Assembly: GCA_025057595.1 (NCBI GenBank)
Contig: JANXBK010000005.1
Coordinates: 28,849-92,848 of the forward strand
Reading direction: 5' to 3'
DNA length: 64,000 bases
From: Thermodesulfovibrio sp.
GTDB lineage: Bacteria > Nitrospirota > Thermodesulfovibrionia > Thermodesulfovibrionales > Thermodesulfovibrionaceae
Part shown: piece after piece, positions 29,762 to 40,838 of the stretch
Layout: every line of letters starts with the position of its first letter
Numbering within the stretch: position 1 is the stretch's first letter
Program-made: the position numbers and the translations under genes
The notes under the pieces: generated by a model
What the model saw: only the letters and a program-made list of their open reading frames with translations
The model's database searches: none
Told to the model about the DNA's origin: nothing

Positions 29762-30379
29762 ATGAAATATTTAAGAAGTAGCAAAGGTTTTACACTTGTT
29801 GAGCTTGCCATTGTATTAGTCATCATCGGTATTATTTTGGGTGCGGTGCTTAAGGGACAAGAATTAATTTATAACGCAAAGGTTAAAAGAGTTCAAAGTC
29901 AAATTAAAGAATTTGTAGCAGCTTTTTACACTTACTATGATAAATATGGATATTACCCCGGTGATGACCCTGCAGCCTCAGCGAGATGGTCTGGAGCACC
30001 AAACGGTAACGGTAATGGTTTAGTTGAAGGAGGATATTGTGATACTGCTGAAGAGTCATGCTATTTATGGAGACATTTAAGATATGGAAACATAATAAGT
30101 GGTGATCCTGCAGATGCCACTCCTGCCACTTTACTACCTAAGCATGCTTTTGGTGGTAATTTAGATATGTTTACAGGGACTTACACTGTAGGTGGTGTTC
30201 CTCGTTCTGGATTATGGATAACCTTAAGAAATATAGAAGCACAGGCAGCAGCCGCAATTGACAGGGCTATGGATGATGGTAAATGTACAACAGGTTCAAT
30301 TGCAAGATATGCTGGAGCAACATGTAGTAATGCTGATTATCCTTCATCAGGATATTTAGATATCTGGATGAATTTCTAA
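29762..30379 (+). CDS. Type IV prepilin-like protein (major pilin candidate)
   Basis: MKYLRSSKG^FTLVELAIVLVIIGIILGAVLKG class III signal; AAGGAGGT RBS; upstream of an MSHA-like pilus operon. Confidence 0.92.
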   Translation: MKYLRSSKGFTLVELAIVLVIIGIILGAVLKGQELIYNAKVKRVQSQIKEFVAAFYTYYDKYGYYPGDDPAASARWSGAPNGNGNGLVEGGYCDTAEESCYLWRHLRYGNIISGDPADATPATLLPKHAFGGNLDMFTGTYTVGGVPRSGLWITLRNIEAQAAAAIDRAMDDGKCTTGSIARYAGATCSNADYPSSGYLDIWMNF

Positions 30380-30582: not shown

Positions 30583-30628
30583 GAATCTGGTATAATATTG
30601 ACACAAAGAATCAAAATTGAAGAATAAC

Positions 30629-31954
30629 ATGAAAGCGTACATAAACATTGAGGGCGATATAGTAAAACTTCTGATTTCCTCAGGCAAAAATATAGAGTAT
30701 ACCACTTTATCAAAAAATGAACTTTTAGGCTTTCTAAAACAAAAGAAAATTAAAAAAGTTGTAATCTCTCAATTCTATCCGGAGCTTTTATCAATAAAAA
30801 TACCTATTCCTTTTACAGAAAAACCACTAAAGAGTAAAAAAATTATAGAAGGACTAATTAAAACCGAATTAATCAAAAGATTCCGTGAATTAGATAACAT
30901 ATCCTATCAATATGAAATAGTTGAAACTGAAGCAAGAGCATGGATAAGAGTATACCTAATCAGTGATAAGGAGTTGGAAACTATTAATAGTCTAATTTTA
31001 AATGATATTGAAATTATTGGAAATTATCCTACCTTTATGATATTAAGAGCGTTTGTCTCCTCTCTCTATAAATTTGATACATTTTGTCAATTGATCTGTC
31101 TTGTTTCAGACAAAAGAAGATATCTTTTTTTATTTTATGGTAAAGAGATGGTTTTTCAAAGAGGTTATGAATCAGAAGAGACAGCTCTAAATAGTGATGA
31201 TATAATAAACATAAATATGACTATTAGTTACTCTATTCAAAACCTTAGACTTAATCCAGAAAAGCTTATTTTTATCGGAGTAGAACCAACGGAGATTTCA
31301 GGAATAAGTGTCTCTTCAGAATTTTTAAATATTGATAAAAACTTAGCTCAACCTGGATATCTTGTGACAACACTTCTAAAAGAGTTTGAAAAAAAACTTA
31401 AAGGTAAAGAGTTTCTATCTAAGGAGTATAAAAGTTTCAGTAAAACAAAACTGTCTTTCAAATATGCTTTTTTTACTGCTTTTCTTCTTCTGGCAGTTTC
31501 TTCTGTATATGCAACTAATATGCTTGTTAATGTCCTTGAAAAGTCAAAGGAAATTAGTTTCTACAAAAAAGAAATATCTCATAAAGAAAAAATGTTTTTT
31601 ACTCTAAAAAGAACAATTGAAGAATTTGAAAGAAGTTCGAAACCTGCATTAGAGCTTTATGCTAAAAAAGTATCTTATCCAGATGTAAGAATACTATTAA
31701 ACTCAGTTGGGATAGCCTCTTCAAAATTTAAACAAGCTCAGATAGACTCTGTTGAAATTGAAAATGTGAAACCTCCAAAGATTAAAATATCGGGTAAAAT
31801 TTTTACTGACAGCTTTTCAGAAAGACAAGAAATTTATATGAATTTTAAAATGGAACTTGAAAAAGAAAACTTAAAAATATCTCAAGAAAAATGGGATTTT
31901 ATGAAGGGAGAGTACTCCGTAGAGGCTATTTATGAGACTAAAAGAGTATTTTAG
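30629..31954 (+). CDS. PilM/MshI/GspL-like pilus assembly protein
   Basis: Actin-like N-terminal region and one TM at the position expected for MshI/GspL; operon order. Confidence 0.65.
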   Translation: MKAYINIEGDIVKLLISSGKNIEYTTLSKNELLGFLKQKKIKKVVISQFYPELLSIKIPIPFTEKPLKSKKIIEGLIKTELIKRFRELDNISYQYEIVETEARAWIRVYLISDKELETINSLILNDIEIIGNYPTFMILRAFVSSLYKFDTFCQLICLVSDKRRYLFLFYGKEMVFQRGYESEETALNSDDIININMTISYSIQNLRLNPEKLIFIGVEPTEISGISVSSEFLNIDKNLAQPGYLVTTLLKEFEKKLKGKEFLSKEYKSFSKTKLSFKYAFFTAFLLLAVSSVYATNMLVNVLEKSKEISFYKKEISHKEKMFFTLKRTIEEFERSSKPALELYAKKVSYPDVRILLNSVGIASSKFKQAQIDSVEIENVKPPKIKISGKIFTDSFSERQEIYMNFKMELEKENLKISQEKWDFMKGEYSVEAIYETKRVF

Positions 31955-32450
31955 AGAAAAAATTTATAGCAAACTTCTAACTCTTTCAATTTTTATTTTT
32001 GCCCTTTCTGCAATCCTTTCTTTTTCAATTTATCTAAAAAAACTTTTTTACTCAATGGAAGAGGATATAAGGAATCTTAAAGAGGTAAAAATTAAAATAG
32101 ATAAAACTGAAGAATTTCAGAGGCAAGTTCAAAAAATTTCCTTTCCCGAGATTGAAAAAAATGAGCGAGCAGTTACTCAACTGTTAGATTTTTTATCCTC
32201 AAAATTTCCCCAGATAAAATTTAACCTTTCAACTTTCAAAAAAAACGGTAAAGAGCTTTCCTATGATTTAAGTATAAAGGGTGAAGGAAGTTTTTCTAAC
32301 TTTTCTGAGTTAATTAATTTTATTGAAATTTGGAAGTATCCTATTTTATTTATAAAATCAATTAAAATTAGTAGAAAAGAGAATATACTTGACTTTGAAA
32401 TCCGATGTGAAATAAAAGTTATTGAGCATGAAAGGGAAAAGAAAGTTTAA
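31932..32450 (+). CDS. PilN/PilO (MshJ)-like pilus assembly protein
   Basis: Single N-terminal TM + coiled coil, operon position. Confidence 0.65.
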   Translation: MRLKEYFREKIYSKLLTLSIFIFALSAILSFSIYLKKLFYSMEEDIRNLKEVKIKIDKTEEFQRQVQKISFPEIEKNERAVTQLLDFLSSKFPQIKFNLSTFKKNGKELSYDLSIKGEGSFSNFSELINFIEIWKYPILFIKSIKISRKENILDFEIRCEIKVIEHEREKKV

Positions 32451-32838
32451 AATCTCTATTATCTTATTTTTAATTTCATTAGTTTTGCCATTTGCAGCTT
32501 ATAATATAAAACCACCGAAATTCATTGGAACTACAGAAACTCAGATAGCATCTTTTCAACTGCCTGAGATTCACCATTTTGAAATTAAAGAAAAAGCCTC
32601 TATGAAAGTTTCAGATCCCTTTAAGTTAGCTGAAAGAACACTGCCTAAAGAGAAGTTATCTTTACCGGTCTTGTCAATGATTTATACTGGTAAAAACAGA
32701 TATGTGATTTTAGGTGACAGTATTATAAAAGAAGGTGAGAAATGGGGAGAGTTCAGAGTAAAAAAGATAAATCTTGATAAAATTCTATTAGTTGATAAAA
32801 AAGGAGAAAAAATATGGCTAAAAATGGAAAGTTATTGA
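32422..32838 (+). CDS. PilP/MshK/GspC-like periplasmic protein
   Basis: N-terminal anchor, PilP/GspC-like C-terminus (ILGDSIIKEGEKWGEFRVKKINLDKILLVDKKGEKIWLKM). Confidence 0.7.
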   Translation: MSMKGKRKFKISIILFLISLVLPFAAYNIKPPKFIGTTETQIASFQLPEIHHFEIKEKASMKVSDPFKLAERTLPKEKLSLPVLSMIYTGKNRYVILGDSIIKEGEKWGEFRVKKINLDKILLVDKKGEKIWLKMESY

Positions 32839-34406
32839 TTTTTTTATTTCTTTTTTTAATATCCTGTAGTACTTCTTCTCTGCGTAGTGATATTCAGATA
32901 CCAAAAGTTGACTTACCTGAAAAAAAAGTTGAAGAAAAAACTCAACCAGTACCCCAAGATTTTAGAATAGAAAATCCTCCAATTAATCCTTTACAGATGA
33001 AAAGAATCTCAGTGAATGTGAGAGCAACACCCCTAAGAGATATTCTTTTAGTAATAGCAAAAGATGCAGGTCTTAATCTTATTTTAGAGAAAGATGTGGA
33101 TCCTAACACTCCTATAACCCTTGTCCTTACAGATGTCACTTTACAGGATGCTATTGAGGCAGTGATCTCATCGACTGATTACTTCTACAAAATAGAAAGA
33201 AATATTCTTACTGTTAAGGCTACCGAAACAAAAATATTTCATCTTAGTATGTTTCCTGTACATCAAACCTATACAACAGAAGTAGGAGGAGATATTCTTG
33301 GTGGTGTTACAGGACAGCTTACAACAGGAGGAACAGCTGGCGGTGGTGTAAGCACAGAAATAAAAGGAAATGTATCAAAAACTGAAAAATCAGATGATGC
33401 TGCATATAAATTTTGGGACAGTATTGAAAAATCTCTCACTACAATTCTTAGTAGAACACCCGCTCAACCTGTTGGCCCCCCAGCAACTCAACCTGTTGCA
33501 CAGCCTTTATTACAAACTACAGAGTATTTCATAATAAATAGACTTACAGGCACGGTAATGGTTACTGCTACCAAGAAAAATATGCAAAAAGTGGAGCAGT
33601 ATCTTAATACCATCAAAAAAGTTATGGGCAGGCAAGTTTTAATTGAGGCAAAAGTTATAGAGGTAACACTCTCTGATTCTTTAAAATATGGAATTGATTG
33701 GTCATTTTTAAGAGAGTGGTCTCACGGAACACATCACTGGAGTATAGGAGGTGGTACAACAGATTTTACCACAGCTGTTCCCTTTACCTCTCCCTATTCT
33801 GATATAAGATTCTCTCTTACAACAACAGCTATAAAGGATTTCTCTGTTATTATTAAAGCATTATCACAGTTTGGAGATATAAGAACTCTCTCAAATCCAA
33901 GAATAAATATTATGAATGGTCAAACTTCATTACTTACAGTTGGAAGAAACTTCACATTTATATCAAAAGCAGAAAGCAATGTTGCCACAGCCGTGGGAGG
34001 AACTCCAATAATAACTTATACAGTTGAAACAAGCAATCTTTTGTCGGGACTCATAATTGGAATTGTTCCCTATATTGATGACAAGGGCGAAATCTCACTA
34101 ACAATAACTCCTGTTATTGCAAATTTGATTGACATAAGAGAGCAAACATTTGGTACTCCAGGAGCTCAAACAGTAATTCAGCTTCCTACTGTTGACTTAA
34201 GAGAATTAAGTACGACTGTTAAAATAAAAGACGGAGAGATTTTAATAATTGGTGGACTTATAAAGAAGGAAGAATCTCTTGCGGAAAATAAAACTCCTCT
34301 GTTAGGAGATATACCAATACTGGGAAGCCTCTTTAAAGGATATGATAGAGTAAAAACGAACACTGAACTTGTAATCCTTCTGCAACCCCGAATAGTTTCA
34401 CAATGA
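32814..34406 (+). CDS. mshL: Type IV pilus/MSHA secretin (MshL/PilQ-like)
   Basis: Lipoprotein-like signal, secretin N-domain ISVNVRATPLRDILLVIAKDAGLNLIL, C-terminal VKIKDGEILIIGGLIKKEE...VPILG-type secretin motif. Confidence 0.93.
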   Translation: MAKNGKLLIFLFLFLISCSTSSLRSDIQIPKVDLPEKKVEEKTQPVPQDFRIENPPINPLQMKRISVNVRATPLRDILLVIAKDAGLNLILEKDVDPNTPITLVLTDVTLQDAIEAVISSTDYFYKIERNILTVKATETKIFHLSMFPVHQTYTTEVGGDILGGVTGQLTTGGTAGGGVSTEIKGNVSKTEKSDDAAYKFWDSIEKSLTTILSRTPAQPVGPPATQPVAQPLLQTTEYFIINRLTGTVMVTATKKNMQKVEQYLNTIKKVMGRQVLIEAKVIEVTLSDSLKYGIDWSFLREWSHGTHHWSIGGGTTDFTTAVPFTSPYSDIRFSLTTTAIKDFSVIIKALSQFGDIRTLSNPRINIMNGQTSLLTVGRNFTFISKAESNVATAVGGTPIITYTVETSNLLSGLIIGIVPYIDDKGEISLTITPVIANLIDIREQTFGTPGAQTVIQLPTVDLRELSTTVKIKDGEILIIGGLIKKEESLAENKTPLLGDIPILGSLFKGYDRVKTNTELVILLQPRIVSQ

Positions 34407-36043
34407 GACTTGGCGATATCTTAATTCAAAAAGGCATAATAACAGAAGAACAGCTGAATATTGCGCTAAGTGTTCAAAAAATTACAGGTCAAGTTCTTGG
34501 AAAATGTTTAGTTTCACTTGGTTTTGTCACTCCTTCAGAACTTGCAGAAGTGCTCGCCTTTCAACAGGGAATTGAATACATAAATGTAAGAAACTTTCCA
34601 ATAGAAACTCAACTGCTTAATAAATTTCCAAAAGACATAGCATTTACAGCAAAATTTTTACCTCTCACTGAGGAAGATGGATATATAAGAGTTGCACTTA
34701 CAGATCCAGGAAATATTGTCGCTATTGATGTAGCCAAATCAGCTACAGGCAAAAAGATTAAACCATACCTTACAGATGAAGAGGGTTTTTTAGATGCTAT
34801 TGAAAAAGCCTATTACTTTTTAGAGAATCCTACAGAAAAAATTATAAGTGAAGTCTCAAATATTGTTATTAACACCGGTGTTATTCCTCCGGATAGACTT
34901 CCGCAAGTTGTGGAAGCAATTCTTGCAGAAGCTATAAGAAGAAATGCCACAGATATTCATCTTCTAATAAATTCTGGTGTTTTAAGTGTATTTTACAGAG
35001 TCGATGGAATACTTCAGTATGCCTTCTCTTTACCAAAACAGCTTCATAGTGGAATAATTTCAAGAATAAAGATTCTCTCAAGACTTGATATAGCAGAGCA
35101 AAGACTTCCACAGGATGGCTCCTTTGTCTTTGATTTTCTTGGTAGAAAATATGAAATAAGAGTATCCACAATTCCTACAATTGAAGGAGAAAGCATGGTT
35201 TTAAGAATACTATTTGGTGGCTCAGAAGAATTGTACAATCTTTTAAAACTCGGCTTTGATTTAGAACTTATACATACATTAAAAAGCTTAGTAAAAAAAC
35301 CAAATGGAATTATGCTTGTTGTTGGTCCAACAGGCTCAGGGAAAAGCACCACTCTTTATGCATTACTTAGAGAGGTGGATAGGCTTAAAAGAAGTGTTAT
35401 AACCATTGAGGATCCTGTTGAATATAGAATCTCTTTTACAAAACAAAGTGAAGTCAATGAAAAAATAGGATATAACTTTTCCCTTGCAGGAAGGAACTTT
35501 ATGCGTCACGATCCAGATATAATACTACTTGGAGAGATAAGAGATGAAGAAACATCTCGTATTGCTATAAGAGCCTCTATCACTGGACATCTTGTCTTAA
35601 GCACTCTTCATACAAATGATGCTGTAAGTGCAATCCCAAGACTTTTTGATTTGGGTGCAGATAAATTTTTACTTAGCTCATCTCTTCTTGCTGTGCTTAG
35701 TCAAAGACTTATCCGAAAAATCTGCTCTTTCTGTAAAACTGAAAGAGAACCAACTGAAGAAGAAAAAAAAGTTTTCACTTCTTACGGATTAAATATTAAT
35801 AAAATTTACTATGGAAAAGGCTGTAAAATGTGTCGTAACACAGGCTATCTTGGAAGAACAGCTATTGGTGAACTAATGATTATAAATGAAGAAATAAGAG
35901 AGATGATTTATTCTGGTGCTTCTTTTGTAGCAATGGTTCAGGCTGCCAAAAAAAGTGGTATGATTCCGCTAAAGATTGATGGATTTAAAAAAGTAGCTCA
36001 AGGAGTCTCTACTCTTCAAGAGGTTGAAAGAGTATTAGGATGA
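34403..36043 (+). CDS. Pilus extension ATPase (GspE/PilB/MshE-like)
   Basis: VVGPTGSGKSTTLYALL, TIEDPVEY, RHDPDIILLGEIRDEETSRIAIRAS, CxxC..CxxC zinc motif. Confidence 0.95.
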   Translation: MRLGDILIQKGIITEEQLNIALSVQKITGQVLGKCLVSLGFVTPSELAEVLAFQQGIEYINVRNFPIETQLLNKFPKDIAFTAKFLPLTEEDGYIRVALTDPGNIVAIDVAKSATGKKIKPYLTDEEGFLDAIEKAYYFLENPTEKIISEVSNIVINTGVIPPDRLPQVVEAILAEAIRRNATDIHLLINSGVLSVFYRVDGILQYAFSLPKQLHSGIISRIKILSRLDIAEQRLPQDGSFVFDFLGRKYEIRVSTIPTIEGESMVLRILFGGSEELYNLLKLGFDLELIHTLKSLVKKPNGIMLVVGPTGSGKSTTLYALLREVDRLKRSVITIEDPVEYRISFTKQSEVNEKIGYNFSLAGRNFMRHDPDIILLGEIRDEETSRIAIRASITGHLVLSTLHTNDAVSAIPRLFDLGADKFLLSSSLLAVLSQRLIRKICSFCKTEREPTEEEKKVFTSYGLNINKIYYGKGCKMCRNTGYLGRTAIGELMIINEEIREMIYSGASFVAMVQAAKKSGMIPLKIDGFKKVAQGVSTLQEVERVLG

Positions 36044-37254
36044 ATATATATTGGTATAAGGCTCTAAACCCTGAAGGGAAAATTCTTAAGGGCTTTATCA
36101 AAGCAGAAAACGAAAGCTCAGTTATGACTTCTCTTACGATAAAAAATCTTTATATTATATCAATCTCCAAAATTCCTTCTTTTCTACAACCTATTACTGA
36201 GTTTTTCTCTTTAAAGATTAAAAATACCGATTTAATTGAGTTTTCTAAAAATCTCTCTTTAATGCTTAAGGCGGGAATACCTCTAACAGTAGCACTTTCA
36301 GATATTGGTGAAAATATAAATAAAGAAAAATTTAGGAGAGTGGTTCTTGATATAGGAGATCTTGTTGAAAAGGGAGTCTCTTTTAGTGAAGCTTTATCAA
36401 TGTATCCTCAGATATTTCCACCTATATTTCAGTATCTTATAAAAATTGGCGAAGAAACAGGCCGTCTTGACAAAAGCCTTGATGATTTAGTTGACCACTT
36501 TCAAAGAATTGAAGAATTAAAAACGGCAATAAAAAGAGCTCTTATCTATCCTGTTTTTGCAACTGTTGCCTCGATGGCTGCCATAGGATTTTGGATGGTA
36601 TATGTCTTACCCAAAATTGTTGGAGCAATGAAAGACATGGGAGTTAAAATTCCTCTTATGACAGAGGTATTAGTTCAAATAGGAGTTTTTCTTCAGAAGT
36701 TTTTTTATCTATTTCCTTTAGTAGCAATATTAGTTTTTATAGTATTTCAAATTTTTAAAAGAAATGAAAAATTTAGATGGACAAGAAGCTATCTTGCTTT
36801 TAGTATGCCAATTTTTAAACAGATACTTTATACTCGTTCAGTAGCTCTTTTTTGTGAACAGATGAGAATACTCTTGGCTGCTGGAATTTCAATTGATAGA
36901 GCCTTTGATATGACCAAAGATGTAATAAATAACGAAATAATGAAAAAGGCCATTGGAAAAGCAAAAGACAAAATTTTAGCTGGTGAGAGAATCTCTAAAT
37001 CATTGAAGGAACAAAAAATTTTTCCCTCTTTAGTCATTAGACTTGTAGATGTAGGAGAAGCATCAGGTAGACTTGAAGAACAATTAGGTTTTCTTAATAC
37101 TTATTATACAAATCATCTGCAAGAGTATTCAGCAAGATTAGGTAAAATAATAGAACCTATTATGATAGGCATTATTGGATTGTTCTTTGCTATAGTGATA
37201 GTAAGCCTGTTAAGTCCTCTTTATGATTTAATTACAAAGCTTGGCAGAACATAA
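36040..37254 (+). CDS. Pilus inner-membrane platform protein (GspF/PilC/MshG-like)
   Basis: FSKNLSLMLKAGIPL, MIKIGEETGRLD-like repeats, three TM segments. Confidence 0.94.
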   Translation: MNIYWYKALNPEGKILKGFIKAENESSVMTSLTIKNLYIISISKIPSFLQPITEFFSLKIKNTDLIEFSKNLSLMLKAGIPLTVALSDIGENINKEKFRRVVLDIGDLVEKGVSFSEALSMYPQIFPPIFQYLIKIGEETGRLDKSLDDLVDHFQRIEELKTAIKRALIYPVFATVASMAAIGFWMVYVLPKIVGAMKDMGVKIPLMTEVLVQIGVFLQKFFYLFPLVAILVFIVFQIFKRNEKFRWTRSYLAFSMPIFKQILYTRSVALFCEQMRILLAAGISIDRAFDMTKDVINNEIMKKAIGKAKDKILAGERISKSLKEQKIFPSLVIRLVDVGEASGRLEEQLGFLNTYYTNHLQEYSARLGKIIEPIMIGIIGLFFAIVIVSLLSPLYDLITKLGRT

Positions 37255-38072
37255 TGGAGTATCTTAACTTTTATAAACTTAAAGAAGACCCATTTGGTAT
37301 AACTCCAGATCCAGATTTTTTTTATCCATCAAAACTACATTCAGAGGCTATTCAGTCAATGGAGTATTTCATAAAAAAAGGTGAAAGTTTTATGCTTCTT
37401 ACTGGTGAACCTGGCACAGGAAAGACAACTTTAATAAAAACATTTCTTAAAAATTTTAACGAAGCCTCACCAGTTGTAATTTATCATTCTACTTTGTCTA
37501 CAAAGGATTTTCTTAAAACTTTAATAAAAAACTTTGCTAAAGAAGAGATGGAAGTATCAGAGAAACTTGAAAAATTTTTAGACAAAATTGATCTATTCAA
37601 TATGCTCACAGAAGTACTGGAGTACAGAAAAATACAAGGCATAAAAAACCTTGTTATAATTGATGAAGCTCAAGATTTACCAGAAGAAACATTAGTGGAG
37701 ATAAAACATATTTCCAACTTAGAAACAGAAAAGGAAAAACTTATCCATTTTATTTTATTAGCTCAACCTTATTTTGAAAATTTACTTAAATCTCATGCTC
37801 AACTTAATCAGAGAATAAGTCTTAGAGTAAGAATTAATCCCCTTAGTAGAGAGGAAACAGAAAGTTACATAAAATTTAGACTTCAGAGAGCAGGGGATCC
37901 TCCTATTGTATTTAAAAATTCAGCGATAAAAGCAATACATAAAAAATCTAAGGGTATTCCAAGACTTATAAATCTTATTTGCTCAAGAGCTTTAATGGTT
38001 GGCTACTTAGAAAGCTCTTACATGATTAAAAAATCTTTTGTAAAAGTAGCAGTAAAGCATCTTAATCTTTAA
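37254..38072 (+). CDS. ExeA/MshM-like AAA ATPase
   Basis: LKEDPFGITPDPDFFYPS, LTGEPGTGKTTLIKTFL, LVIIDEAQDL. Confidence 0.92.
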   Translation: MEYLNFYKLKEDPFGITPDPDFFYPSKLHSEAIQSMEYFIKKGESFMLLTGEPGTGKTTLIKTFLKNFNEASPVVIYHSTLSTKDFLKTLIKNFAKEEMEVSEKLEKFLDKIDLFNMLTEVLEYRKIQGIKNLVIIDEAQDLPEETLVEIKHISNLETEKEKLIHFILLAQPYFENLLKSHAQLNQRISLRVRINPLSREETESYIKFRLQRAGDPPIVFKNSAIKAIHKKSKGIPRLINLICSRALMVGYLESSYMIKKSFVKVAVKHLNL

Positions 38073-38089
38073 AAAATATCCCATCTAAA

Positions 38090-38920
38090 CTAATAAGATT
38101 TTAGCTTCTCTATTAAAGGAGCTACAGAGTAATCTCCAAGTTGATATAGTCTTTCATAAAGGTTTAAAGCTTCTTTATGCTGACCTTTTTTCTCCTTCAG
38201 TAAAGCTAAATTAAAAAGAGCAGTTTTGTTGTCTGGTTCAATACTAAGCACCTTAAGGAAACTTTCTTCTGCTTTGTCAAGCTCTCCCATTTTAGCCTTT
38301 ATAACCCCGTAGTTTATTAAAACTTCTTTGTTAATTTGATTGCTCTTTACTGCTAACTCCGCATAATGGTTTGCCTCTCTTAGATTGCTCATAAGAAGAT
38401 AAAGAGCAGCAATTTTGTTTAAAATCATAGTGTCTGCTTTCCCAGTATAGTTTATGTATTCTTTATACTCATTAATAGCATCCGATAAAAATCCTCTCTG
38501 TTCAAAATCCTGTGCTCTATAAAGATAATCTACACCCTTAAAAGCATCCACAGAAGTAAAAGGAAGTTCCTTAGGTACAAATCTATAGTTTATGTCTTTA
38601 TATCTCCTTTGAGTATCTTCTATCCTCTCACTCTTAATTCCTTTATTTTGACTCTTTGTCTCTTTCTTCTGAGCTATTTCAGTTTCCTCATTTCTTTTAA
38701 TTTTGACTAATGAGGAATCTTTTTGAGTATTTATTATAGAGGAAGCAGGCTTTGTTATAACTTCAGTAGAAAAGTAATGGCTATATAAATGCACAATCCA
38801 GACTCCTGAAACCAACAGGAAAACAGAAAATCCAATTAGTAGGAAGAATTTTTTTGAAGGTTTGCCCCTCTTAACTATTCTTAATAATCCCGGTGGTATA
38901 TCTTTTTTTTGATTTATCAT
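38090..38920 (-). CDS. TPR protein (MshN-like)
   Basis: N-terminal TM, TPR repeats; located between mshM-like gene and prepilin. Confidence 0.75.
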   Translation of the reverse strand: MINQKKDIPPGLLRIVKRGKPSKKFFLLIGFSVFLLVSGVWIVHLYSHYFSTEVITKPASSIINTQKDSSLVKIKRNEETEIAQKKETKSQNKGIKSERIEDTQRRYKDINYRFVPKELPFTSVDAFKGVDYLYRAQDFEQRGFLSDAINEYKEYINYTGKADTMILNKIAALYLLMSNLREANHYAELAVKSNQINKEVLINYGVIKAKMGELDKAEESFLKVLSIEPDNKTALFNLALLKEKKGQHKEALNLYERLYQLGDYSVAPLIEKLKSY

Positions 38921-38923
38921 TTA

Positions 38924-40666
38924 TCAGTAAAATCCTATTCCAAAATCACTTATTTCAACTTGTTGGAATGCTCCACCTGTTCCTCCAGTAAAACCAAATT
39001 TGATTGAATTCATTGAAGTTGGTAACTGGAAACAGTGGGATACATTTGGATTTGCAGTATAGTTTTGGGTCAGATCTCTACAAGTTGTACAATCAATCCA
39101 AGCTTTAAAATAAGCATAATTCTGAGGATTACCATCACAGTTGGTACATTGAGGATTACATCCTGTATGAATTTCTACTCTAACTGCATGCTCAACTCCG
39201 TCTTCAAGCCATGTAGCTGTAGAACCAACTACACAACCTGCTGTGGGACATGTAGGATTACTTCCCATTGTAGTAGATGCGCCATGAGTGTTGTTACCTC
39301 TTTTAACAATAGCAACATGATTATTGTTAGGATCATACCTCCATGTTCCTGTATTTGGATAAGTATCAACTTCTAATGCAATTGAATCATATCCAAGTCC
39401 TCCAAAACCTATATCTACACCCAAATTACCGCAAGCAGTATCAGGCATGCTACTTGTTACTACAGCAAATGTAAATCCATCAGCAAATTGCGTTGAGTTA
39501 GAGGATGTATCTACTGTTAAAAATTTAAATTTAAAATATGCTCTTAATGTTTTTCCACTTAGTAGATATGCTGAGGGAAACCAGAAACAACCGTATGTGT
39601 AATTTGTATATCCTCCAAATACAACAGTATTACCAACAACATTTACAGCATTTGGATTATTCTCTGTTGTTTGAAAGCTCGAAATGTTATTTGCAAAGGA
39701 TACCTGTGAGCCTGGTGGAGCTCCTCCGCCAGTGGATGTTTGAGGATTTATTGTCAAAACAAAAGCTTTTGATGCAATATTACCATCATTGTCTTTTACA
39801 TAAAATTTTAAACTAAATGTTCCTTGAGTAGTTGGTGTTCCTGTAATTGTAAGAGTATCGGCTCCTCCCCAATTTGTCTCATTAAAACAATTAGAGGAAG
39901 CTGTTGAAGGAGCAGCATTCAATCCAGACGGTAAATTCCCTTCACGACACCATTGATATTTGCCACCTGATTGAAAAAAGACTCCTCCTTCAGCATAAAT
40001 TGTTGCATTATAGGAGGAGCCTACATATCCATAAGGTAATTCATTATTTAATATCTTCAATTGAGCACCTTGGCAGCCTATTTTCATTCTTATTTCATCA
40101 AGAGTAATCCATTTAACAAGATCATCATAAGACTCTGGACGATTAATATCAGCAGAGTAGTTATCAATATTAGGAGTATCAGGAGAATAAATATTTATAA
40201 TAGTAACATTATTTATTTGTTGTATTCCTGATGTCTGGTTATTATAATTACCTCCTCCGCTTATCATTAAAAACGCTATATTTTGTATATCTTGATAATT
40301 ACTATTATCCTGATACACTCTTAAGATTATTTTTGTTGTTCTTCTGTCACATATTTTATGCTCTGTTCCAGATGGTTGTTGAACTAAATCATTATCCACA
40401 ATATAATAAAAACTCTTTCCCCAAGCATCATTACGATTGCGAATCACTGATATAAACTCTAAGATACTTGGTAATCTTTTATTCCCTGCAGCCCAACTAA
40501 TTATTGCCTCTACGTTTGCATTAAGAGTCTCCTTAGTTTCCTGTAATTTTGCTCTCTTTGTAAGTGGAGCAATCAAACTTGCACCAAGACCGATTAGTAA
40601 ACCTAAAATTACAAGCACTATAGCTACTTCAATAAATGTAAGTCCTTTGTTCTGGTAATTTTCCAT
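38924..40666 (-). CDS. Large prepilin with Ig-like and L-type-lectin-like domains (putative pilus adhesin)
   Basis: MENYQNKG^LTFIEVAIVLVILG class III signal; Ig-like TLTITGTPTTQGTFSLKFYVKDNDGN; lectin-like FADGFTFAVV...IALEVDTYPN...DPNNNHVAIV...HAVRVEI...IKFGFTGGTGGAFQQVEISDFGI. Confidence 0.85.
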   Translation of the reverse strand: MENYQNKGLTFIEVAIVLVILGLLIGLGASLIAPLTKRAKLQETKETLNANVEAIISWAAGNKRLPSILEFISVIRNRNDAWGKSFYYIVDNDLVQQPSGTEHKICDRRTTKIILRVYQDNSNYQDIQNIAFLMISGGGNYNNQTSGIQQINNVTIINIYSPDTPNIDNYSADINRPESYDDLVKWITLDEIRMKIGCQGAQLKILNNELPYGYVGSSYNATIYAEGGVFFQSGGKYQWCREGNLPSGLNAAPSTASSNCFNETNWGGADTLTITGTPTTQGTFSLKFYVKDNDGNIASKAFVLTINPQTSTGGGAPPGSQVSFANNISSFQTTENNPNAVNVVGNTVVFGGYTNYTYGCFWFPSAYLLSGKTLRAYFKFKFLTVDTSSNSTQFADGFTFAVVTSSMPDTACGNLGVDIGFGGLGYDSIALEVDTYPNTGTWRYDPNNNHVAIVKRGNNTHGASTTMGSNPTCPTAGCVVGSTATWLEDGVEHAVRVEIHTGCNPQCTNCDGNPQNYAYFKAWIDCTTCRDLTQNYTANPNVSHCFQLPTSMNSIKFGFTGGTGGAFQQVEISDFGIGFY

Positions 40667-40838
40667 GTTTTTAATTTTATTAAAAAATACCTTTACTGTC
40701 AACTTTAAAAAATTCTGTCAACAATTTAACGAAATGTCTTTAATAGTTTAAAATATAAAAACTGGTAGTAAAATCAGGTGAAAGGCTTCATTTTTAATAA
40801 AACAGAAAAATTAACTGAGTTAAAACTAATTTTTTAAT

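What the first reader, a model, noticed from the sequence alone, without database searches (positions are those of the whole stretch)
38924..40666. Prepilin fused to an Ig-like and an L-type-lectin-like domain: candidate lectin-tipped type IV pilus
The protein starts with a class III prepilin signal (NKG^LTFIEVAIVLVILG). It then has a putative Ig-like segment and ends in ~240 aa with the hallmark order of L-type (legume/bacterial) lectins: ADGFTFAVV, ALEVDTYPN, DPNNNHVAIV, VRVEI, GFTGGTGGAFQQVEISDFGI. It sits divergently at the end of an MSHA-like pilus cluster. An anaerobe carrying a glycan-binding pilin would suggest specific attachment to partner cells or biofilm polysaccharide. The lectin region also has many Cys (GCFW, TACGN, CPTAGC, GCNPQCTNC, CTTC, SHC), which suggests disulfides or metal sites.
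Basis: partly seen in the sequence, partly recalled or inferred. Interest (0 to 1): 0.78.

Follow-up and report, generated by a model that had tools for sequence, protein, structure and literature searches.

The report
Sugar-binding head on a bacterial pilus
A hair-like surface fibre (type IV pilus) gene in a Nitrospirota bacterium carries, on an otherwise ordinary pilus subunit, a plant-lectin-like sugar-binding head that relatives at the same locus replace with a different head; the layout is already known from one oral streptococcus, but this lectin type and its swapping between species look new.

Summary
The 580-aa ORF is a class III prepilin (MENYQNKG^LTFIE), a pilin domain, one He_PIG Ig-like domain (209-307) and a C-terminal L-type lectin (about 320-580). 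The lectin is supported by Pfam PF18483 (E=1e-13, below the curated cut-off), a profile match to a solved archaeal legume-type lectin (6e-20), and an AlphaFold model (pTM 0.85) whose 50 listed PDB matches are all legume-type lectins. The concanavalin-type metal residues (E432, D434, D445, H450) are invariant in the lectin pilins. Glycan binding itself is untested.

The architecture is not new: Streptococcus sanguinis PilC is a pilin-Ig-lectin protein shown to bind glycans. New here are the L-type lectin class, the Nitrospirota/MSHA setting, and evidence that the head is exchangeable. In congener G004 the syntenic gene has a 70%-identical stalk and Ig but a different ~86-aa cap. G007 keeps an orphan lectin 3' end (71-73% identical) behind another stalk and cap. 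Trees reject one origin for lectin-bearing stalks (p=0.0004). Most likely this is a pilus-displayed, metal-dependent glycan adhesin with an exchangeable head. Verdict: new variant of a known kind, interest 0.5.

The parts
38924..40666 (-). Modular prepilin gene, 580 aa: class III prepilin + Ig-like + L-type lectin
40061..40666 (-). Prepilin leader (MENYQNKG^LTFIE) and pilin stalk, residues 1-202; helix 11-62 in the model
   Evidence: stalk family in 52 of 396 phylum genomes searched
39710..40060 (-). Ig-like domain (He_PIG 209-307) and linker, residues 203-319
38927..39709 (-). L-type (legume-type) lectin domain, residues 320-580; metal-site residues E432, D434, D445, H450; N438 and D396 as candidate sugar ligands
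38090..38920 (-). TPR protein with an N-terminal hydrophobic stretch, 3 bp behind the lectin pilin; conserved partner of the stalk gene in the genus
29762..30379 (+). Major-pilin-like prepilin (MshA position)
30617..32838 (+). Three genes in the mshI/J/K positions; assigned by place and size only, no family hit
32814..34406 (+). MshL secretin (TIGR02519 above cut-off)
34403..36043 (+). MshE-like assembly ATPase with c-di-GMP-binding motif (NF053729 and MshEN above cut-off)
36040..37254 (+). MshG/GspF-like platform protein
37254..38072 (+). AAA ATPase in the MshM position

Best explanation
The gene encodes a modular minor pilin. Its N-terminal pilin part is cleaved and built into a type IV pilus, most likely the MSHA-like one encoded next to it. 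The Ig-like domain acts as a spacer, and the C-terminal L-type lectin is displayed on the filament surface or tip, where it binds a glycan through a loop ordered by Ca2+ and a transition metal, as legume lectins do. Pilus extension and retraction, possibly gated by c-di-GMP at MshE, would let the cell attach to a sugar-coated surface (matrix polysaccharide, biofilm or partner cell). The head is an exchangeable module on a conserved stalk. Shown computationally: domains, fold, metal residues, conserved partner gene, head exchange. Inferred: processing, incorporation, tip location, glycan binding, ecological role.
For: Prepilin signal and pilin helix. Lectin by PF18483 (1.1e-13), profile vs PDB (Methanocaldococcus legume lectin 7elv 5.6e-20, peanut lectin 3e-12), and fold (pLDDT 80, pTM 0.85; Foldseek E about 1e-11, prob 1.00, all 50 listed hits legume-type lectins). 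Metal residues E432/D434/D445/H450 invariant. Same locus beside mshM in G004 with 62-86% identity per block up to residue 316 and then none, where the relative has an ~86-aa cap. Seven lectin-bearing stalk proteins in Nitrospirota and one Geobacter MAG. The window's stalk groups with cap-bearing G004/G010 at 100/99, and one clade for lectin stalks is rejected (p-AU 0.0004). Orphan lectin 3' end in G007. Experimental precedent for a pilin-Ig-lectin that binds glycans: S. sanguinis PilC (PMC9934059).
Against: PF18483 score is below Pfam's cut-off (52 vs 78.3). Loops 122-127, 141-158 and 162-164 of the lectin model have pLDDT below 50, and the full-length model leaves the lectin poor. No prepilin peptidase was found in this genome bin, though the bin is 72% complete and 13 of 16 genus genomes have one. 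In G002, G009 and G012 the stalk gene is not beside msh genes, so it may serve another type IV pilus; PilB- and PilT-like ATPases exist elsewhere in G000. The Asn equivalent (N438) is not conserved across the clade.
Confidence: 0.7

Rival explanations
1. The lectin-fold head is not a sugar binder but a structural or protein-binding module, as many concanavalin-like domains are; the metal site only stabilises the fold.
For: N438, the usual monosaccharide-contact Asn, varies or is shifted in relatives; three loops are predicted with low confidence.
Against: Metal-site Glu/Asp/Asp/His are invariant across very divergent members, including the phylum's other L-type lectins that are not pilins; the window protein keeps D396 and N438.
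Confidence: 0.2
2. The protein belongs to the PilB/PilT-type pilus encoded elsewhere in the genome, not to the MSHA-like machine beside it.
For: The stalk and TPR pair is unlinked to msh genes in G002, G009 and G012; PilT/PilU-like genes at C11 and a PilB-like ATPase at C6.
Against: Next to mshM in G000, G004 and G008, with the TPR gene beside mshM in G013 at a contig end; an mshA-like gene lies nearby in G007.
Confidence: 0.25
3. The lectin head was inherited together with its stalk and heads are not exchanged; cap-bearing relatives lost or changed tips independently.
For: Five of the seven lectin stalks do group together, with one other stalk (98/91).
Against: The window stalk sits inside a trio whose other members carry caps (100/99); the AU test rejects one clade for lectin stalks (p=0.0004) and for window + G278_655 (p about 1e-55); a lectin remnant in G007 lies behind a different type of stalk.
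Confidence: 0.05

Closest known systems
Streptococcus sanguinis minor pilin PilC (PMC9934059)
   Same: Same order: class III prepilin, Ig-like module, concanavalin-A-superfamily lectin; glycan binding shown there; modelled at the pilus tip.
   Different: PilC's lectin was superposed on galectin-7 in that paper; ours matches legume-type (L-type) lectins with the metal motif. Monoderm pilus vs a diderm MSHA-like pilus. Direct homology was not tested here.
Modular pilins in general (PMC8179133)
   Same: Prepilin with grafted non-pilin domains; He_PIG (PF05345) is among the 15 commonest architectures in that survey of more than 1,200 proteins.
   Different: An L-type lectin graft is not named in the passages read, and exchange of heads at one syntenic locus is not described there.
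L-type lectins (PF18483/PF00139), e.g. pea lectin and 7elv from Methanocaldococcus jannaschii
   Same: Fold, ADGF motif, E-x-D-x-Y-P-N...D-P...H metal motif, closing GFT...G motif.
   Different: Below both Pfam cut-offs; extra conserved cysteines; fused to a prepilin.
Tad pili with adaptable tips in Myxococcus (PMC12075869)
   Same: Idea that pilus tips are customised by alternative large minor pilins.
   Different: Different filament class; paralogous tip sets rather than a replaced C-terminal domain.

Membership tests
Type IV prepilins | Class III signal with Gly(-1) and Glu(+5), then a hydrophobic helix | tested here: met
   MENYQNKG^LTFIE; TIGR02532 and PF07963 above cut-off; helix 11-62
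Type IV prepilins | Prepilin peptidase available in the organism | tested here: inconclusive
   PF01478 absent from the 72%-complete bin, present in 13 of 16 genus genomes
Modular pilins (S. sanguinis PilB/PilC type) | Non-pilin domains grafted behind the pilin part | tested here: met
   He_PIG and lectin
L-type lectin superfamily | Legume-lectin jelly-roll fold | tested here: met
   Model pTM 0.85; Foldseek prob 1.00 to legume lectins, TM 0.52-0.71
L-type lectin superfamily | Metal-binding Glu, Asp, Asn/Asp, His | tested here: met
   E432, D434, D445, H450 invariant, N438 present; by alignment, not by docking
L-type lectin superfamily | Carbohydrate binding | not testable with these tools
   Needs protein
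Pfam PF18483 at its curated threshold | Score at least 78.3 bits | tested here: not met
   52.0 bits, E=1.1e-13: a divergent member of the superfamily, not filed under the curated family
MSHA-type pilus cluster | MshL secretin with MshE/G/M neighbours | tested here: met
   TIGR02519 263 vs 250 bits; c-di-GMP MshEN motif; GspF; AAA ATPase
MSHA-type pilus cluster | Minor pilins MshB/C/D/O/P and MshQ | not tested
   None is evident among the ORFs listed from 24 to 52 kb, but no dedicated search was made

The most novel reading that the evidence does not exclude
The stalk/TPR pair is a standing tip-exchange locus: resident stalks acquire new heads by recombination, orphan heads left behind (as in G007) can serve as donors, and species change what their pilus sticks to without changing the pilus, comparable to displaced C-terminal modules of polymorphic toxins but for adhesins.
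Probability: 0.15. Interest if true: 0.8.

Novelty: new variant of a known kind. Interest (0 to 1): 0.5.

Why it matters
It would extend glycan-binding pilins from a human oral bacterium to Nitrospirota and to the legume-type lectin class. It also gives a clear natural series (same stalk and locus, different heads, plus a relic) in which pilus specificity can be tested by swapping one domain. The 62 stalk proteins compared, with caps, lectins, Kelch propellers, MopE-type motifs and acidic repeats, are a list of candidate pilus adhesins.

Tried and rejected
Divergent orientation: rejected, the gene is convergent with the msh genes. Recent acquisition of the lectin from a genome of different composition: not supported (GC 36.0% vs 32.6% for the window; GC3 16.8% vs 19.3% for the stalk). 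Cys residues as one metal cluster: disfavoured, since C503/C510 and C526/C529 come and go as separate pairs in relatives (only 7 sequences). The full-length fold search gave mostly Ig-type matches and no pilin match in the rows listed. The pilin profile matched solved pilins mainly over the N-terminal helix, so the pilin subtype stays open. No Pfam family for the ~86-aa cap. No paper found on L-type lectin pilins or on MshQ as a lectin. Organism name not determined: Nitrospirota rests on my knowledge that Candidatus Magnetomicrobium belongs there and on G076 matching that record (59,090-base contig); that the genus is Thermodesulfovibrio is a guess from genome sizes.

Full report
WHAT IS THERE. 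The ORF at 38924-40666 lies on the minus strand and encodes 580 aa. Residues 1-8 are a class III leader, MENYQNKG, cut before LTFIE, which keeps the Glu at +5. Pfam finds He_PIG at 209-307 (E=5.2e-7). With the whole protein no lectin family was listed, but residues 320-580 alone reach PF18483 Lectin_L-type_dom at E=1.1e-13 (52 bits; curated cut-off 78.3) and PF00139 at 7e-6. A profile of 12 related domains finds the Methanocaldococcus legume-type lectin 7elv at 5.6e-20, peanut lectin at 3e-12 and concanavalin A at about 1e-5.

FOLD AND METAL SITE. AlphaFold of the lectin alone gives pLDDT 80 and pTM 0.85, and all 50 listed PDB matches are legume-type lectins (E 2e-11 to 1e-9, probability 1.00; TM to 7elv 0.71 by target length). 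Loops 122-127, 141-158 and 162-164 are uncertain. The full-length model is weaker (pLDDT 69, pTM 0.41), with a good helix 11-62, pilin part and Ig domain and a poor lectin. In the sequence ALEVDTYPNTGTWRYDPNNNHVAIV the residues matching the concanavalin metal ligands (Glu8, Asp10, Tyr12, Asn14, Asp19, His24; numbering from my own knowledge) are E432, D434, Y436, N438, D445 and H450. The Glu, both Asp and the His are invariant in every lectin of the alignment that covers the site; Tyr and Asn vary. D396 of the ADGF motif is also kept here.

CYSTEINES. The lectin holds 10 of the 14 Cys. C360, C412, C473, C478, C507 and C545 are in all lectin pilins of this stalk family that cover them, and absent from the phylum's ordinary L-type lectins in the alignment. 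C503 with C510, and C526 with C529, are present or absent as pairs in relatives. I read this as disulfides rather than one metal cluster; only seven sequences bear on it.

NEIGHBOURS. The + strand cluster carries a major-pilin-like gene, three genes in the mshI/J/K places, MshL (above its NCBIfam cut-off), an MshE-like ATPase with a c-di-GMP MshEN motif, a GspF-like protein and an AAA ATPase. The lectin pilin and the TPR gene lie on the other strand, tail to tail with them. The TPR gene starts 3 bp after the pilin stop and is a conserved partner: a strong match in 11 of 16 genus genomes, this one included, next to the stalk gene in most. A near-consensus sigma-70 site (11 of 12) ends 8 bp before the ATG, with no evident ribosome site, so a leaderless transcript is possible; this is only a pattern match.

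STALK FAMILY AND HEADS. The pilin stalk occurs in 52 of 396 phylum genomes searched at E<=1e-10. Among 62 stalk proteins compared, 28 end in or carry an ~86-aa cap with no Pfam match, 14 have no head, 13 have other tails and 7 have the lectin. Lectin pilins occur in G040, G076 (Candidatus Magnetomicrobium), G265, G278 (two) and a Geobacter MAG, usually right behind a headless stalk gene. A further such lectin sits in a 1484-aa protein behind three prepilin genes in a Syntrophaceae MAG. Four of the seven lectin stalks lack Glu(+5), which in GspK goes with a tip position (own knowledge); the window protein keeps it.

HEAD EXCHANGE. G004 has the same gene in the same place beside the TPR gene and mshM. 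Its identity to the window protein is 62-86% per 30-residue block up to residue 316, then none: it carries the cap. In G007 a different stalk with a cap (about 35% identical) is followed, within 40 bp, by the last ~65 residues of the window's lectin (71-73% identical), then the TPR gene. MshE is 77% identical between these two genomes, so the relic is about as diverged as vertical descent would give. On the stalk tree the window joins G004 and G010 (100/99); lectin carriage needs at least four changes, and one clade is rejected (p-AU 0.0004). So heads were exchanged over evolutionary time. Exchange within a living population is not shown.

HOW IT MOST LIKELY WORKS. The pilin part enters a type IV pilus, the Ig domain spaces the head, and the lectin binds a glycan with metal-ordered loops. 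Processing, tip location and binding are inferred. The closest tested case is S. sanguinis PilC, a pilin-Ig-lectin that binds sialylated glycans and heparin oligosaccharides (PMC9934059); modular pilins including He_PIG ones are widespread (PMC8179133).

VERDICT. The architecture is known, the lectin class and setting are new in what I could search, and head exchange is the most interesting part.

Noticed in passing
L040:7880-9373 (G076, Candidatus Magnetomicrobium): A 117-bp tandem repeat (about 12 copies) encodes a long Asp/Lys/Ser-rich stretch inserted inside the lectin domain of a 1341-aa pilin of a bacterium named as magnetotactic.
   Followed up: partly
L031:2105-2284 (-) (G007): Orphan lectin 3' end between a cap-bearing prepilin and the TPR gene; a possible relic or donor.
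   Followed up: yes
L096:284-3553 (-) (G262): Stalk-family pilin with cap followed by MopE-type copper-binding motifs (PF11617, E=4e-57).
   Followed up: no
L057:8654-11353 and L058:6706-10452 (-): Lectin pilins with Kelch repeats behind the lectin.
   Followed up: no
L093, L094 (G343); L095 (G218): Tandem arrays of stalk-family pilins with different tails.
   Followed up: partly
window 40666-40702 (-): TTGACA-17-TAAAAT ends 8 bp before the ATG: possible leaderless transcript.
   Followed up: no
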